Of a stretch of DNA of 64,000 bases, positions 13,588 to 58,493 are shown piece by piece. This DNA comes from Micromonospora narathiwatensis (GTDB lineage Bacteria > Actinomycetota > Actinomycetes > Mycobacteriales > Micromonosporaceae). The first letter of the stretch is position 1. Each line of letters starts with the position of its first letter. A program made the translations under genes and the position numbers. The notes under the pieces are model-generated. The model was given only the letters and a program-made list of their open reading frames with translations, ran no database searches and was not told the DNA's origin. The stretch is taken from the NCBI RefSeq assembly GCF_900089605.1, contig NZ_LT594324.1, positions 6,014,001 to 6,078,000 on the forward strand, read 5' to 3'.

Positions 13588-14103
13588 ATGCAGTTCGGCC
13601 GCTACTACGAGGAGTTCGAGGTCGGCGCGGTCTACCGGCACTGGCCGGGCAAGACGGTCACCGAGTACGACGACCACCTCTTCTGCCTGCTCACCATGAA
13701 CCACCACCCGCTGCACATGGACGCCCACTACGCCGGGACGGCGACCCAGTTCAAGCGCAACGTGGTGGTCGGCAACTACATCTACTCCCTGCTTCTGGGC
13801 ATGTCGGTGCCGGACGTCAGCGGCAAGGCGATCGCCAACCTGGAGGTCGAGTCCCTGCGGCACGTCGCCCCGACCTTCCACGGCGACACCATCTACGGCG
13901 AGACGACGGTGCTGGACAAGCGGGAGTCCGCCTCGAAGCCGGACCGCGGCGTGGTGGCCGTGGAGACCCGGGGCTACAACCAGGACGGCACCCTGGTCTG
14001 CGTGTTCCGGCGCAAGGTCATGGTGCCGAAGAAGGAGTACGCGGCGGCGGCCCTGCCCGAGGGGGTCGACCCGGAGCGACCCAGCTTCCCCGAGCCGCGC
14101 TGA
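13588..14103 (+). CDS. MaoC-family hydratase/dehydratase
   Basis: A 171-aa single hot-dog protein of the MaoC family. It has the N-terminal FGRYYEEFEVGAVYRHWPGK, the TMNHHPLHMDAHYA stretch carrying the expected catalytic His/Asp region, and VVVGNYIYSLLLGM. Members hydrate enoyl-CoA substrates; closely similar proteins act as mesaconyl-CoA hydratases. With the CitE-like lyase (3796) and acyl-CoA dehydrogenase (6917) this suggests a dispersed ethylmalonyl-CoA set, but that is inferred. A ribosome-binding AAGGGGA precedes the ATG, and a hairpin terminator follows. Confidence 0.88.
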   Translation: MQFGRYYEEFEVGAVYRHWPGKTVTEYDDHLFCLLTMNHHPLHMDAHYAGTATQFKRNVVVGNYIYSLLLGMSVPDVSGKAIANLEVESLRHVAPTFHGDTIYGETTVLDKRESASKPDRGVVAVETRGYNQDGTLVCVFRRKVMVPKKEYAAAALPEGVDPERPSFPEPR

Positions 14104-14121
14104 CGCCCGACGTACGACGCC

Positions 14122-14150
14122 GGCCCCTTCCGATCCGTGCGGAAGGGGCC
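14122..14150 (+). terminator. Terminator of maoC
   Basis: Arms GGCCCCTTCCG (14122-14132) and CGGAAGGGGCC (14140-14150) with a 7-nt loop, followed by CGTTTCCCGTTTC, 18 nt after the stop. Confidence 0.8.
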
Positions 14151-14193
14151 CGTTTCCCGTTTCGGGGCATATGCTGACGCCGGAGGTCCCCCG

Positions 14194-14277
14194 ATGAGCG
14201 AGCGCCAGCGAGCGAATCATCAGCACAGCGCTGGTGAGCCTCATGACGGCGTCGGGCGAAGCGAGACGCCGGCATGA
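14194..14277 (+). repeat. Dispersed mini-ORF repeat, copy A
   Basis: An 80-bp element runs from an ATG at 14194 to the ATG of the next gene at 14274. It contains a 27-codon open frame beginning M-S-E-R-Q-R-A-N-H-Q and ending in a TGA that overlaps the downstream ATG (ATGA). A perfect GGAGG lies 7 nt before the mini-ORF ATG. About 71 of 80 positions match copy C at 58410-58493, with identical spacing. Nine of 27 codons end in A or T, so it does not look like an old protein gene. It probably couples translation to the following gene. Confidence 0.75.
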
Positions 14278-14762
14278 GCCACTCCGTCGCCGGTGAGCCG
14301 CCCGCCGCCGGGCGTCGTGCCGCACCGCCGACCATCGCCGTCTACTCCCCGGCGGAGTGGGATCTGTTGACCGATCTTCCCGGTCGGGTCCTCGTCGCCG
14401 CCGCCTCGGCGGGACCCGGGCGCCCACCCCGCGGCGTGGCCGCCGGGCTCGCCGGGCTGGACGCCGTCGCGGCCGGCCGGGGGTTCGACAGCGACCTGGT
14501 CCGAGCCGTGGTCTCCGCGATCTACGCCCGGCACGACGGTGCCGCTGAGCGGCACGACCGGCTCACCGACATGGTCGACCTGCTCGCTGCCTGCCGGGCC
14601 ACGGTACGCGTGCTCAGGCGACGCGCCGACCCGGCCGACTCGGCGGCCTACCGGCAGTGGGTGGAGTCCGTCGCGGCCCGGGTCTGCCGGGTCGGCGACG
14701 GGGCCAGCCCGGCCGACCGGCGTTTTCTCGACCGGCTCGGCGGCGCGCTCGACCTGCGCTGA
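14274..14762 (+). CDS. Conserved hypothetical protein behind repeat A
   Basis: A 162-aa, mostly alpha-helical soluble protein with no recognised domain. Clear stretches are TIAVYSPAEWDLLTDLPGRV, DSDLVRAVVSAIYARHDG, DLLAACRATVRVLRRRADP and a C-terminal GDGASPADRRFLDRLGGAL. The regular helices and the D-x-x-x-F-L-D pattern recall TerB-like helical proteins, but this is weak. The ATG is supplied by the repeat's ATGA overlap; the first ~20 residues are low complexity. Codon bias supports real coding. Confidence 0.65.
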   Translation: MSHSVAGEPPAAGRRAAPPTIAVYSPAEWDLLTDLPGRVLVAAASAGPGRPPRGVAAGLAGLDAVAAGRGFDSDLVRAVVSAIYARHDGAAERHDRLTDMVDLLAACRATVRVLRRRADPADSAAYRQWVESVAARVCRVGDGASPADRRFLDRLGGALDLR

Positions 14763-17454: not shown

Positions 17455-18120
17455 GTGGCGAGCAGGGACCCGCTGGAGGAGGAGTTCCGCGAGTTCGTCG
17501 CGGCCCGGTCCAGTGCCCTGCTGCGTACCGCGTACCTGCTGGCCGGCGACTGGGCGACGGCCGAGGACCTGCTCCAGACCGCGCTGACCAAGACGTACCT
17601 GGCCTGGAAGCGGCTCGGCGGGATCGAGGCCATCGAGCCGTACGCCCGCCGGGTCCTGGTCAACACCTCGACGAGCTGGTGGCGGCGTCGCTGGCACGGT
17701 GAACGCCCGACCGAGGTGCTGCCCGAGCGGGCCGGCGTCGACGAGATCGAGCAGCAGCTCGACCGGGACGCGCTCTGGCGGCACCTCCAGGCCCTCCCGG
17801 CCCGGCAGCGGGCCGTACTGGTGCTCCGGTTCTACGAGGACATGTCCGAGGCGCAGACCGCGGCGCTGCTGGAGATCTCCCCGGGCACCGTGAAGAGCCA
17901 GACCTCGCGCGCGCTGAACACGCTGCGCCGCCGGCTGGGCTCCGCGGCGGCCCTCGGTCTGCCCGCCGAGCAGGAGGCCGCGCCCGCGCCGCGTACGCCG
18001 TCGGTGCCCCGCGCCGTGCCGCCGCCGGCCGCGCGCCCGCCGGCGGTCCGGCCGGCCCCGCTGCCCGCCGGCCCGGCCATCGCCCGCCCCGCCACCAGCG
18101 TGCCGGTGGAGACCCGATGA
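17455..18120 (+). CDS. SigE-family RNA polymerase sigma factor (pair 1)
   Basis: A 221-aa group IV sigma factor of the actinobacterial SigE-like type. Region 2 is LLRTAYLLAGDWATAEDLLQ with LTKTYLAWKRL; region 4 is [20 protein letters not shown] then LLEISPGTVKSQTSRALNTL, a clear helix-turn-helix. After about residue 160 comes a 60-residue Pro/Ala-rich tail that the paralogue at 51786 lacks. GGAGG sits about 7 nt before the GTG start. Its stop overlaps the ATG of repeat copy B, which leads to the membrane partner at 18182. It probably directs a stress regulon including itself. Confidence 0.9.
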   Translation: MASRDPLEEEFREFVAARSSALLRTAYLLAGDWATAEDLLQTALTKTYLAWKRLGGIEAIEPYARRVLVNTSTSWWRRRWHGERPTEVLPERAGVDEIEQQLDRDALWRHLQALPARQRAVLVLRFYEDMSEAQTAALLEISPGTVKSQTSRALNTLRRRLGSAAALGLPAEQEAAPAPRTPSVPRAVPPPAARPPAVRPAPLPAGPAIARPATSVPVETR

Positions 18121-18185
18121 GCGAGCGAATCGTCAGGGTACGGCGAGGTGGCGCCATGAGCGAGCGCAGTGAGGTGGCGGCATGA
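18117..18185 (+). repeat. Dispersed mini-ORF repeat, copy B
   Basis: A 22-codon open frame begins M-S-E-R-I-V-R-V and repeats M-S-E-R-S-E near its end. Its ATG overlaps the sigma-factor stop (ATGA, 18117-18120) and its TGA overlaps the ATG of the partner gene (ATGA, 18182-18185). This variant is shorter than copies A and C and seems to hold two tandem cores of the ATGAGCGAGCG unit. It places a translational relay between sigma factor and partner. Confidence 0.75.
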
Positions 18186-19447
18186 GCCGTTCGCCGTACC
18201 GCGGTGACAACCAGACGGGCGGTCTGGAGCGTCCACTTCCCGTGACCGACGACGAGCTGGAGCGGGCGCTGCGGGACACCTTCGCCCGCCAGGTCGCCAC
18301 ACCGCGACCGCTCGCCGCCGACCCGGCCGGCGTGGCCGTCGGGCGGGCACGGCGGAGCGGCCACCGCCGTACGCTGGCCGGGCTCGCCCTGGCCGGGGTG
18401 GCCACGGTGCTGGTCAGCACCGGCACGGCCCAGTTCGGCGGATCGTCCGCTCACCAGGACACGCCGACCGTGGTGCTCGGCGATCCACGCGGATTCTCGC
18501 CCTCTCCGCTGCCCACCGAGTCCGCCGTGGCCCCCACGGCCGGCCCGGTCCGCCCCGAACTCGACATGATCGTCGGCCCCTGGCTCTACACGAACGGTGG
18601 CGAGCGGTGGGAGCTGACCGGGGTGAGCAGCGTCGAGCAGGCGCAGCGCGTCTCCGACCACGGGGGCTGGCTGCTCACCTCGGGGGTCACCGCGGCCGGC
18701 CGTACCCTCTGGTGGGTCCCGCCGAACGGCGGGTCGACGCAGGTGCTCCTCGCCGGCGCGGACGCGGTCGCGGTCGCCGCGGACGGACGCCAGGTCGCCT
18801 GGCGCGACGGCCCGGAGATCTTCTTCGCCGGCATGGTTGCCGGCCAATTCCTCGCGAACCGCCGTACGGCGGCCCCCGAGGGGGCCGTGCCGGTCGCCCT
18901 CGCCGGCGACGCCGTGCTGATCCGACTGGCCGACCGGGGCGGATTCAGCGTCTGGCACGCGCCGGTCGACGATCGGCTGGGCATCGCGAACCGGGACGTA
19001 CTCAACGTCTACGGCACGCTGCCCGACGGTCGGGTGGTCGGCGAGATCTCGGCCGGTACGCCCCGGCGGCCCTGCCTGGCCCTGCTCGACCCGGCCCGGG
19101 ACCTCACCCCGGTCCGCACCGGCTGCGGCCCGGACCTCGCCACCGACGGCCGTGGCGAGGTCTCCGTCGACGGGCGGTGGCTGCTGGTCAACGGCGCGCG
19201 GGACGACGCGCTCCTGGTCGACCTGCGCACGCTCGGCTCCGGCACCTCGGCCCGGCCCGCCGGACCGGCGGCGACCGGGGTGGTGAGGTGGACCGGGTCG
19301 GGCGCCGCCCTGCACGTCGACGCCACCGGCGGGCTGATCCGGGTACGCCCCGAGCGGGTGGCGGACGGCGAACGGCCGACCGCCTCGCCGGTCGACGGAG
19401 TGGCCCCCGGCGAGCAACCGGTCGTGGTGGCCGACAGCCGCCCCTGA
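18182..19447 (+). CDS. Membrane partner of SigE-like factor (pair 1)
   Basis: A 421-aa protein with a ~60-residue cytoplasmic N-terminus (DDELERALRDTFARQVATPR), one membrane segment (about residues 60-80, TLAGLALAGVATVLVSTGTA) and a large extracytoplasmic domain with beta-propeller-like repeats (DAVAVAADGRQVAWRDGPE, SVDGRWLLVNGARDDALLVD). Position after the sigma gene and topology suggest an anti-sigma or sensory partner; no ZAS zinc motif is seen. It is paralogous in layout to the gene at 50593. Translation is reached through repeat copy B. Confidence 0.72.
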   Translation: MSRSPYRGDNQTGGLERPLPVTDDELERALRDTFARQVATPRPLAADPAGVAVGRARRSGHRRTLAGLALAGVATVLVSTGTAQFGGSSAHQDTPTVVLGDPRGFSPSPLPTESAVAPTAGPVRPELDMIVGPWLYTNGGERWELTGVSSVEQAQRVSDHGGWLLTSGVTAAGRTLWWVPPNGGSTQVLLAGADAVAVAADGRQVAWRDGPEIFFAGMVAGQFLANRRTAAPEGAVPVALAGDAVLIRLADRGGFSVWHAPVDDRLGIANRDVLNVYGTLPDGRVVGEISAGTPRRPCLALLDPARDLTPVRTGCGPDLATDGRGEVSVDGRWLLVNGARDDALLVDLRTLGSGTSARPAGPAATGVVRWTGSGAALHVDATGGLIRVRPERVADGERPTASPVDGVAPGEQPVVVADSRP

Positions 19448-57672: not shown

Positions 57673-58413
57673 TCAGCCCGGCTTCCGGAACGTGATCAGG
57701 CCCGGCTTCGCCTCCAGATGCGACAGCCCGTTCCAGGCCAGGTTCACCAGGTGCGCCGCGACAGTCTCCTTCCGCGGCTTGCGTACCTCCAGCCACCAGC
57801 GGCCGGTCAACGCCACCATGCCCACCAGCGCCTGCGAGTACAGCTCGGCCAGCTTCGGGTCGTACCCCCGGCTGGAGAACTCCGCGCCCAGGATGTGCTC
57901 CACCTGGTGCGCCACATCGTTCATCACGCTGCTGAAGTTGCCCGTCGCCGACATCAGCGGAGACTCCCGGACCAGCACCCGGAACCCGCTGGTCTCCTCC
58001 TCGATGTACGTCAGCAGCGTCAACGCCGCCTGCTCCAGCAACTCCCGCGGATGCCCCGCGGTCAGCGCGCTGGTGATCCGGTCCAGCAGCGACCGGACCT
58101 CGCGGTCCACCACCACCGCGTACAGGCCCTCCTTGCCGCCGAAGTGCTCGTACACCACCGGCTTGGAGACCTTGGCCCGGGCGGCCACCTCCTCGATCGA
58201 GGTGGCGTCGAACCCGCGCTCGGCGAAGATCTGTCGGGCGATCGAGATCAGCTGCTCACGGCGCTGCGCCGCGGACATCCGTACCCGGGAAGAGGACTTG
58301 GCCGCCGGGACCGCCCGCCGCCGGGCCTTGCCGGCGTCGTTGCCCGGAACCTCGGCCATCTCGTCCCCTCGCCGGCGCTCGGTGACGCCCTGCCGTGGGA
58401 TCTGCCCGCTCAT
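57673..58413 (-). CDS. TetR-family transcriptional regulator
   Basis: 246 aa from 58413, or 228 from ATG 58359. The DNA-binding region is SAAQRREQLISIARQIFAER then SIEEVAARAKVSKPVVYEHF; the C-terminal part is a TetR ligand domain (VNLAWNGLSHLEAKPGL). The N-terminal extension ends in repeat copy C, whose mini-ORF stop overlaps ATG 58413; GAGGGGA before ATG 58359 suggests the older start. It corresponds in place to Rv1019 of the mycobacterial glmU region. Confidence 0.9.
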   Translation of the reverse strand: MSGQIPRQGVTERRRGDEMAEVPGNDAGKARRRAVPAAKSSSRVRMSAAQRREQLISIARQIFAERGFDATSIEEVAARAKVSKPVVYEHFGGKEGLYAVVVDREVRSLLDRITSALTAGHPRELLEQAALTLLTYIEEETSGFRVLVRESPLMSATGNFSSVMNDVAHQVEHILGAEFSSRGYDPKLAELYSQALVGMVALTGRWWLEVRKPRKETVAAHLVNLAWNGLSHLEAKPGLITFRKPG

Positions 58414-58493
58414 GCCGCCGCCTCGCTTCGCTCGCCGCCGTCATGAGGCTGCCCAGCGCTGCACTGATGATTCGCTCGCTGACGCTCGCTCAT
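58410..58493 (-). repeat. Dispersed mini-ORF repeat, copy C
   Basis: Minus-strand copy matching copy A (14194-14277) at about 71 of 80 positions. It has a 27-codon open frame starting M-S-E-R-Q-R-A-N-H-Q, with GAGG 7 nt before its ATG (58493), and ends in TGA overlapping ATG 58413 of the TetR gene (ATGA). Confidence 0.75.

What the first reader, a model, noticed from the sequence alone, without database searches (positions are those of the whole stretch)
14194..14277. Dispersed repeat carrying a mini-ORF fused by ATGA to the next gene (copy A)
This 80-bp element has its own GGAGG 7 nt before an ATG, then 27 open codons (M-S-E-R-Q-R-A-N-H-Q...) whose TGA overlaps the next gene's ATG. Copies B and C share the layout. 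The element thus seems to bring a complete translation-coupling leader to unrelated genes (a helical hypothetical protein, a sigma partner and a TetR regulator). Codon use (9 of 27 A/T-ending) argues against a protein-coding origin, so the frame may be kept for ribosome delivery. I remember similar ATGAGCGAGCG strings before genes in other Micromonosporaceae but cannot verify counts.
Basis: partly seen in the sequence, partly recalled or inferred. Interest (0 to 1): 0.85.

Follow-up and report, generated by a model that had tools for sequence, protein, structure and literature searches.

The report
Mobile repeats inserted at start codons
This short DNA repeat sits exactly at gene start codons in a soil actinobacterium and its relatives, adding a tiny reading frame that probably hands ribosomes on to the gene behind it, so that it can spread between genes without silencing them.

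Summary
Window 14194-14277 is an 84-nt repeat whose 27-codon mini-ORF ends in ATGA on the next gene's start. It belongs to a family of about 40 copies in this complete 6.6-Mb genome. All 23 strong copies lead by RTGA overlap into an ORF of at least 156 codons, two through a second mini-ORF. It is an insertion: of 24 congener loci at this site, 16 have a bare ATGA directly behind the gene's own GGAGG, 4 carry an insert, 4 failed the flank rule. So the GGAGG is the host gene's. What the element brings is its right end: a Shine-Dalgarno match (70 of 75 named copies) and a start codon inside a covarying hairpin. All 15 congener inserts judged at orthologous sites are 2 mod 3 and coupled. Compensating +1/-1 indels show that the open frame is kept while the peptide is not. 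The closest known elements are mycobacterial MIRUs: same architecture, but sequence homology is not shown for copy A, and the hairpin differs. Unrelated repeat families occupy the same RTGA sites in congeners. Translation of the mini-ORF and the mobilising enzyme are unproven.

The parts
14182..14186 (+). Shine-Dalgarno GGAGG of the host gene (not part of the element); now stands before the mini-ORF
   Evidence: Present 5 nt before the gene's ATG in 17 congener alleles without the element; 7 nt in the filled alleles
14194..14277 (+). Copy A: inserted element; 27-codon mini-ORF from ATG 14194 to TGA 14275-14277; 80 nt from left to right ATGA
   Evidence: bare alleles
14241..14253 (+). 5' arm of the terminal hairpin (TCATGACGGCGTC)
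   Evidence: Alignment columns 49-61; present in the MFE and centroid folds
14265..14277 (+). 3' arm of the terminal hairpin (GACGCCGGCATGA); contains the downstream start codon and the mini-ORF stop
   Evidence: Columns 73-85; the column 52/82 pair is T-A in 10, C-G in 8, broken in 0 of 18 copies
14274..14762 (+). Downstream ORF of copy A (162 aa, no Pfam match at E<=0.01)
18117..18185 (+). Copy B: two nested short units (18117-18155 and 18156-18185); frame open through both, 22 codons, ends in ATGA
17455..18120 (+). Sigma-70 family gene whose TGA stop is the TGA of copy B's left ATGA
18182..19447 (+). Gene downstream of copy B (421 aa, no Pfam match at E<=0.01); RTGA-overlapped with the sigma gene in several congeners without the element
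   Evidence: by eye
58410..58493 (-). Copy C: 27-codon mini-ORF ending in ATGA
57673..58413 (-). TetR-family gene downstream of copy C

Best explanation
Copy A is one of about 40 copies of a short mobile repeat that inserts at RTGA (ATGA/GTGA) start codons, in the direction of the gene. After insertion the old start codon, still served by the host gene's own Shine-Dalgarno or by the stop of an overlapping upstream gene, starts a mini-ORF (9-39 codons in this genome). That frame runs through the element and stops in an RTGA at its right end, which is the new start codon of the host gene. The right end usually also brings a Shine-Dalgarno match and, in this family, a hairpin that encloses the new start, so the gene should be translated mainly by ribosomes that have just finished the mini-ORF and melted the hairpin. 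Insertions that keep this chain survive; those that break it are lost. SHOWN by sequence: insertion at RTGA, orientation, open frame, overlap, right-end Shine-Dalgarno match, covarying hairpin, spread. INFERRED: translation of the mini-ORF, reinitiation, purifying selection as the filter. UNKNOWN: the enzyme that moves it.
For: Own genome: 23 of 23 strong copies (>=59 bits) have a frame from the left RTG that reaches, by RTGA overlap, an ORF of 156-820 codons with GC3 0.89-0.99; 18 of these 23 had been chosen on that criterion for the model, 5 had not. Named genomes, sites found by the left end alone: 76 of 90 end in RTGA within 60 codons, 64 of them directly before an ORF >=60 codons; control frame offset 2 gives 19 of 90, 16 of them before such an ORF. 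Orthologous sites: 15 of 15 judged congener inserts (lengths 59, 80, 89, 119, 143, 173, 197) are 2 mod 3 and coupled, as are the 10 own ones, which were partly chosen for it; 53 bare RTGA sites at 7 of 10 places. Compensating indels: each of the 13 rows with a full 5' end carries exactly one of two alternative indels (7 and 6; 5 rows lack the 5' end), so the same DNA is read in different frames with the end frame intact. Hairpin: covariation score 0.258 against 0.168+-0.016 in shuffles, 0 of 500 as high; start-codon pair T-A 10, C-G 8, broken 0. Named copies: own arms 12.15 against 10.05+-0.24 permuted, 75 sequences, 200 permutations. Right-end Shine-Dalgarno 4-mer 70 of 75, internal windows 50 of 362.
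Against: No expression or ribosome-profiling data. 14 of 90 named sites do not fit: 7 read on for more than 60 codons, 4 stop elsewhere, 3 run off the sequence held. Of the 23 weaker own matches at least 5 are in-frame fusions to a long ORF and some look like chance. Congener allele L414 (place 4948006) has an element-like left end, a 48-nt gap and no RTGA at the expected start; the rule dropped it. Copies are related, so counts are not independent events, and shuffles do not remove relatedness. A looser motif count of the start-codon pair in 76 named copies is mixed: T-A 20, C-G 14, C-A 13, T-G 2, none 27. The whole-leader fold of copy A is not unusually stable (z -0.95). At site A the filled alleles also have 2 nt more between GGAGG and ATG (7 against 5), which simple insertion into ATGA does not explain. 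Copy C has no clean bare site; copy B's is judged by eye.
Confidence: 0.85

Rival explanations
1. The mini-ORF encodes a conserved functional micropeptide that spread with the repeat.
For: The frame is open in all 23 strong copies, and the 3' motif is read in one frame in 13 of 16 own copies examined.
Against: The conserved left motif is read in frame 1 in 40 and frame 0 in 36 of 76 named copies, and in frames 1 and 2 among the own copies. Lengths run from 9 to 39 codons. Copy A has 9 of 27 A/T-ending codons, against GC3 0.89-0.99 in the ORFs behind the strong copies.
Confidence: 0.04
2. It is an RNA-level regulator (attenuator, riboswitch-like leader or arrest peptide) acquired to control its gene.
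For: The hairpin encloses the start codon and covaries.
Against: The three host genes in the window are unrelated by Pfam, presence varies between congeners at one site, tandem copies occur, and there is no Rfam match at E<=1 for 14100-14400.
Confidence: 0.07
3. It is only a DNA-level hairpin element (MITE or REP-like) with a taste for RTGA, and the frame is a by-product of its fixed length.
For: One 80-nt spacing is common; the hairpin could be a transposase end.
Against: Many lengths keep the frame (59, 65, 71, 80, 89, 119, 143, 173, 197); compensating indels; sequence-unrelated families at the same sites obey the same rule.
Confidence: 0.04

Closest known systems
MIRU, mycobacterial interspersed repetitive unit (Supply et al. 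1997, ref. 77 of PMC12548453; the 1997 paper itself was not seen)
   Same: Short, apparently mobile repeat at start codons with an internal ORF coupled at -4 nt (review passage); tandem arrays of 77-bp and 53-bp units, both 2 mod 3 (passages of PMC2453075 and PMC4213456); some MIRU-like copies visibly sit between two RTGA sites.
   Different: Different sequence: the model finds nothing in the MIRU-rich genomes G129, G207, G227 and G260, and copy A's alignment to a MIRU unit is no better than shuffles. A covarying start-codon hairpin is present here; MIRUs lack dyad symmetry by my recall. The taxa are far wider than the M. leprae and M. tuberculosis complex range that PMC4213456 gives for MIRUs.
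REP/RAYT and IS200/IS605-type elements (recalled)
   Same: A hairpin next to a tetranucleotide end; small copies without a gene for their mover.
   Different: No Y1 transposase match in the own genome or in the copy-rich congeners G003, G005, G217 and G235; but the copy-rich G183 has 7 and G020 has 1.
Translational-coupling uORFs (reviewed in PMC12548453)
   Same: A short upstream ORF delivers ribosomes to the gene behind it (passage).
   Different: Here the uORF is a dispersed insertion, not a gene-specific leader.

Membership tests
MIRU | Short interspersed repeat with a small ORF whose start and stop overlap neighbouring ORFs, in the direction of the genes | tested here: met
   As a yardstick, 30 MIRU sites gave 8 coupled in the expected frame, 5 and 10 in the other two, so that test does not separate frames for MIRUs themselves
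MIRU | Inserted at (D)TGA start/stop sites (name recalled) | tested here: met
   Bare RTGA in congeners at 7 of 10 places
MIRU | MIRU nucleotide consensus | tested here: not met
   Against one MIRU unit: copy A 117, copy 225306 109, copy 1288424 5 of 300 shuffles as good. Four MIRU-rich genomes have no model match. An 11-nt core GAGCGNAGCGA is shared with copies such as 1288424.
MIRU | No dyad symmetry (recalled) | tested here: not met
   Covarying terminal hairpin
MIRU | Tandem, copy-number-variable arrays | tested here: met
   80-nt spaced pairs in congeners; tandem named copies. Variation within one species was not tested
IS200/IS605 or REP/RAYT | Y1 transposase in the genome able to act in trans | tested here: not met
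   PF01797 absent from the own genome; present in 17 of 61 congeners
IS200/IS605 or REP/RAYT | Guide-paired cleavage at hairpin ends (recalled) | not testable with these tools
   The TCAY/RTGA pairing is suggestive only
Rfam RNA families | Covariance-model match | tested here: not met
   No match at E<=1 for 14100-14400; only two tRNAs in the window at gathering scores

The most novel reading that the evidence does not exclude
Start-codon insertion is a general lifestyle of short repeats in Actinobacteria: several sequence-unrelated families in one genus use the same RTGA sites. In the family studied here each copy carries its own new start codon inside a hairpin whose 5' arm (TCAY) pairs with the RTGA. 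That pairing would serve both as the element's end recognition in a single-strand, guide-paired transposition by an unidentified enzyme and as the lock that couples the gene to the mini-ORF.
Probability: 0.2. Interest if true: 0.85.

Novelty: new variant of a known kind. Interest (0 to 1): 0.62.

Why it matters
A strategy known from mycobacterial MIRUs, hiding in start codons behind a coupled mini-ORF, appears widespread in Actinobacteria and used by several sequence families at once. It supplies natural filled/bare allele pairs for measuring translational coupling, warns that some annotated starts and N-termini in these genomes are repeat-derived, and gives a handle on the unknown enzyme that moves such repeats.

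Tried and rejected
A Y1 (RAYT/TnpA) transposase as mover: none in the own genome, and no consistent link with copy number by inspection (G183 and G020 are copy-rich and have Y1 matches). An Rfam family: none. Sequence homology with MIRU: not significant for copies A and 225306, borderline for 1288424. Total insert length mod 3 as the test: dropped, because tandem units add up (the first tally, hand-listed 22 inserts with one 1-mod-3 case, G005 with 80+26); follows the reading chain instead. Rows dropped because flanks did not align to the site or no RTGA was found: A 4 of 24 loci, B 24 of 24, e1506384 13 of 15, e4723374 2 of 11, e225306 0 of 8, e4948006 2 of 9, e2693909 8 of 8, e3746613 10 of 13, e6572133 1 of 16, e4896394 0 of 4. 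Among these, gaps of 60, 60 and 59 (e3746613) and of 48 (L414) were not judged; L373 carries a 59-nt insert with a TTGA right end; L117 is bare by sequence. Place e2651350 gave no listed match. Copy C was compared in 6 congeners without a clean result. An earlier count said 26 inserts, 16 of them in congeners; the recount gives 25 and 15.

Not in print: ten searches of the open PMC library showed no paper that I recognised as describing this repeat; subscription journals are not held. PMC12548453, PMC4213456, PMC2453075 and PMC7884335 were seen as passages only; all others as search listings.

Full report
WHAT IS THERE. Copy A is as described. The window lies at 6014001-6078000 of a one-contig 6.61-Mb genome. 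BLAST gave 18 copies. The covariance model R1, built from 18 copies, gave 46 matches at E<=1, 40 of them below 0.002. There are ATG-type and GTG-type copies and shorter forms down to 9 codons.

PLACEMENT AND FRAME. From the left RTG of each of the 23 copies with 59 bits or more, the reading chain reaches an ORF of 156-820 codons by RTGA overlap; in two copies (416984, 5205843) it passes a second mini-ORF. For three of them the model had misplaced the left end. In the weaker half several are fused in frame to a long ORF (5845937, 2462376, 2470331, 796029, 3672049) and some are probably chance. Because 18 of the 23 had been chosen for the frame, I tested independently. They hold 90 sites: 76 end in RTGA within 60 codons (64 directly before an ORF of at least 60 codons, 12 before a shorter frame, some of them the next tandem unit), 7 read on for more than 60 codons, 4 stop otherwise, 3 are open to the end. 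Frame offset 2 gave 16 plus 3 RTGA cases; offset 1 is uninformative because it starts on the TGA itself.

THE PEPTIDE IS NOT KEPT. In the alignment of 18 copies, the 13 with a full 5' end carry either an extra base at column 10 and a gap at column 29 (6), or the reverse (7); none carries both or neither. The stretch between is therefore read in two frames, and in named copies the shared motif is read in frames 0 and 1 (36 and 40 of 76). What stays constant is the chain from start to RTGA.

INSERTION SHOWN. A 4.7-kb query found the copy A region in the congeners. Of 24 loci in 24 congeners, 16 have a bare ATGA, 4 carry an 80-nt insert, and 4 failed the flank rule. All 16, and L117 among the four, have GGAGG 5 nt before the ATG; the filled alleles have 7, so two extra bases stand in front of the insert there, unexplained. 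By eye, G005, another of the four, carries an 80-nt unit followed by a 26-nt unit. For nine further own copies I compared congeners with one joined query; copy C gave nothing clean. Over the ten places there are 53 bare RTGA sites at seven places and 25 inserts (10 own, 15 congener), all 2 mod 3 and all coupled; the rule demanded RTGA at both ends but not the frame. At place 4723374 all 7 bare sites read ATGA, the own LEFT codon, while the own RIGHT codon is GTG. This one event suggests that the right start codon came with the element, unless it mutated later. Copy B interrupts the ATGA overlap of a sigma-factor gene and its neighbour, which is unbroken in several congeners (by eye).

THE RIGHT END. 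The last 37 alignment columns form a hairpin of 13 possible pairs enclosing the start codon. 86.8% of cells pair; the covariation score is 0.258 against 0.168+-0.016, with 0 of 500 shuffles as high; slid versions score at most 0.168. The first base of the start codon and its partner are T-A in 10 and C-G in 8 of 18 copies, never broken. The two copies of this alignment whose left and right codons differ (1506384, 4723374) follow the right one. Among 76 named copies 17 have different left and right codons. In named families own arms pair better than permuted arms (12.15 against 10.05+-0.24, largest of 200 10.69), but a looser motif count is mixed: T-A 20, C-G 14, C-A 13, T-G 2, none 27. Relatedness inflates such tests. 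A Shine-Dalgarno 4-mer stands before the right start in 70 of 75 copies, before the left start in 57 of 75, and in 50 of 362 internal windows.

DISTRIBUTION. R1 matches 93 of 249 genomes drawn from the order, with stricter filters and at most 18 candidates scored per genome. 33 genomes of the genus, the own included, are listed with matches and one, G242, without; six genomes of two sister genera (g19, g20) are listed without. Named records with the left end include Micromonospora, Actinoplanes, Catellatospora, Pseudonocardia, Kutzneria, Nocardia, Nonomuraea, Actinoallomurus, Streptomyces, Kitasatospora, Nocardioides and an Acidimicrobiales MAG.

OTHER FAMILIES AT THE SAME SITES. At places 6572133 and 3746613 congeners carry a sequence-unrelated 59-60-nt repeat (GTGAGCGCGAGGAG...), and at 4948006 another (ATGAGCGAACGCACC...). 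The first has 63 matches in the own genome against 1 for the control, often in arrays spaced 59 or 60. In the 16 places read, 59-nt units couple and 60-nt units read on in frame into the next unit or the gene; single units do either.

MIRU. The review PMC12548453 says MIRUs appear mobile, insert at start codons and couple at -4 nt (passage). A MIRU core recalled from memory matched 16 of 397 genomes, all of one genus, which I take to be Mycobacterium without a name to prove it. Of 30 distinct sites there, in the expected frame 8 couple to an ORF of at least 60 codons and 16 read on in frame; the other two frames give 5 and 10 couplings, so this yardstick does not by itself show coupling. The architecture is shared as described in print; sequence homology is not shown. 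I call the element MIRU-like and do not file it as a MIRU.

MOVER. Unknown. Y1 transposases are absent here and present in 17 of 61 congeners; several copy-rich genomes have none, some have them.

Noticed in passing
G000:C1, for example 3395491-3395690 and 4491803-4491940 (L453-L456, L463-L465): A second, sequence-unrelated start-codon repeat (GTGAGCGCGAGGAGYGAGCC...), 63 pattern matches in this genome against 1 for the control, in arrays of 59 nt (coupled) or 60 nt (in-frame extension).
   Followed up: partly
L381, L382, L411: A third repeat (ATGAGCGAACGCACCGAGCGCAGCGAGGGCC...), 57-nt in-frame units, sitting in the same RTGA as own copy 4948006.
   Followed up: partly
G000:C1:2462376, 2470331, 3672049, 5845937, 796029: Left parts of the element fused in frame to long ORFs, so repeat-derived N-termini of proteins.
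   Followed up: no
window 14187-14193: Filled alleles of site A have 7 nt between GGAGG and ATG, bare alleles 5; the two extra bases may be part of the insertion.
   Followed up: no
window 14122-14150: GGCCCCTTCC...GGAAGGGGCC inverted repeat between the MaoC-like gene and copy A, terminator-like by eye.
   Followed up: no
L261: Asanoa copy whose right end has a strong CTGCTCCTCGC...GCGAGGAGCAG stem that does not reach the start codon, so the hairpin differs between families.
   Followed up: no
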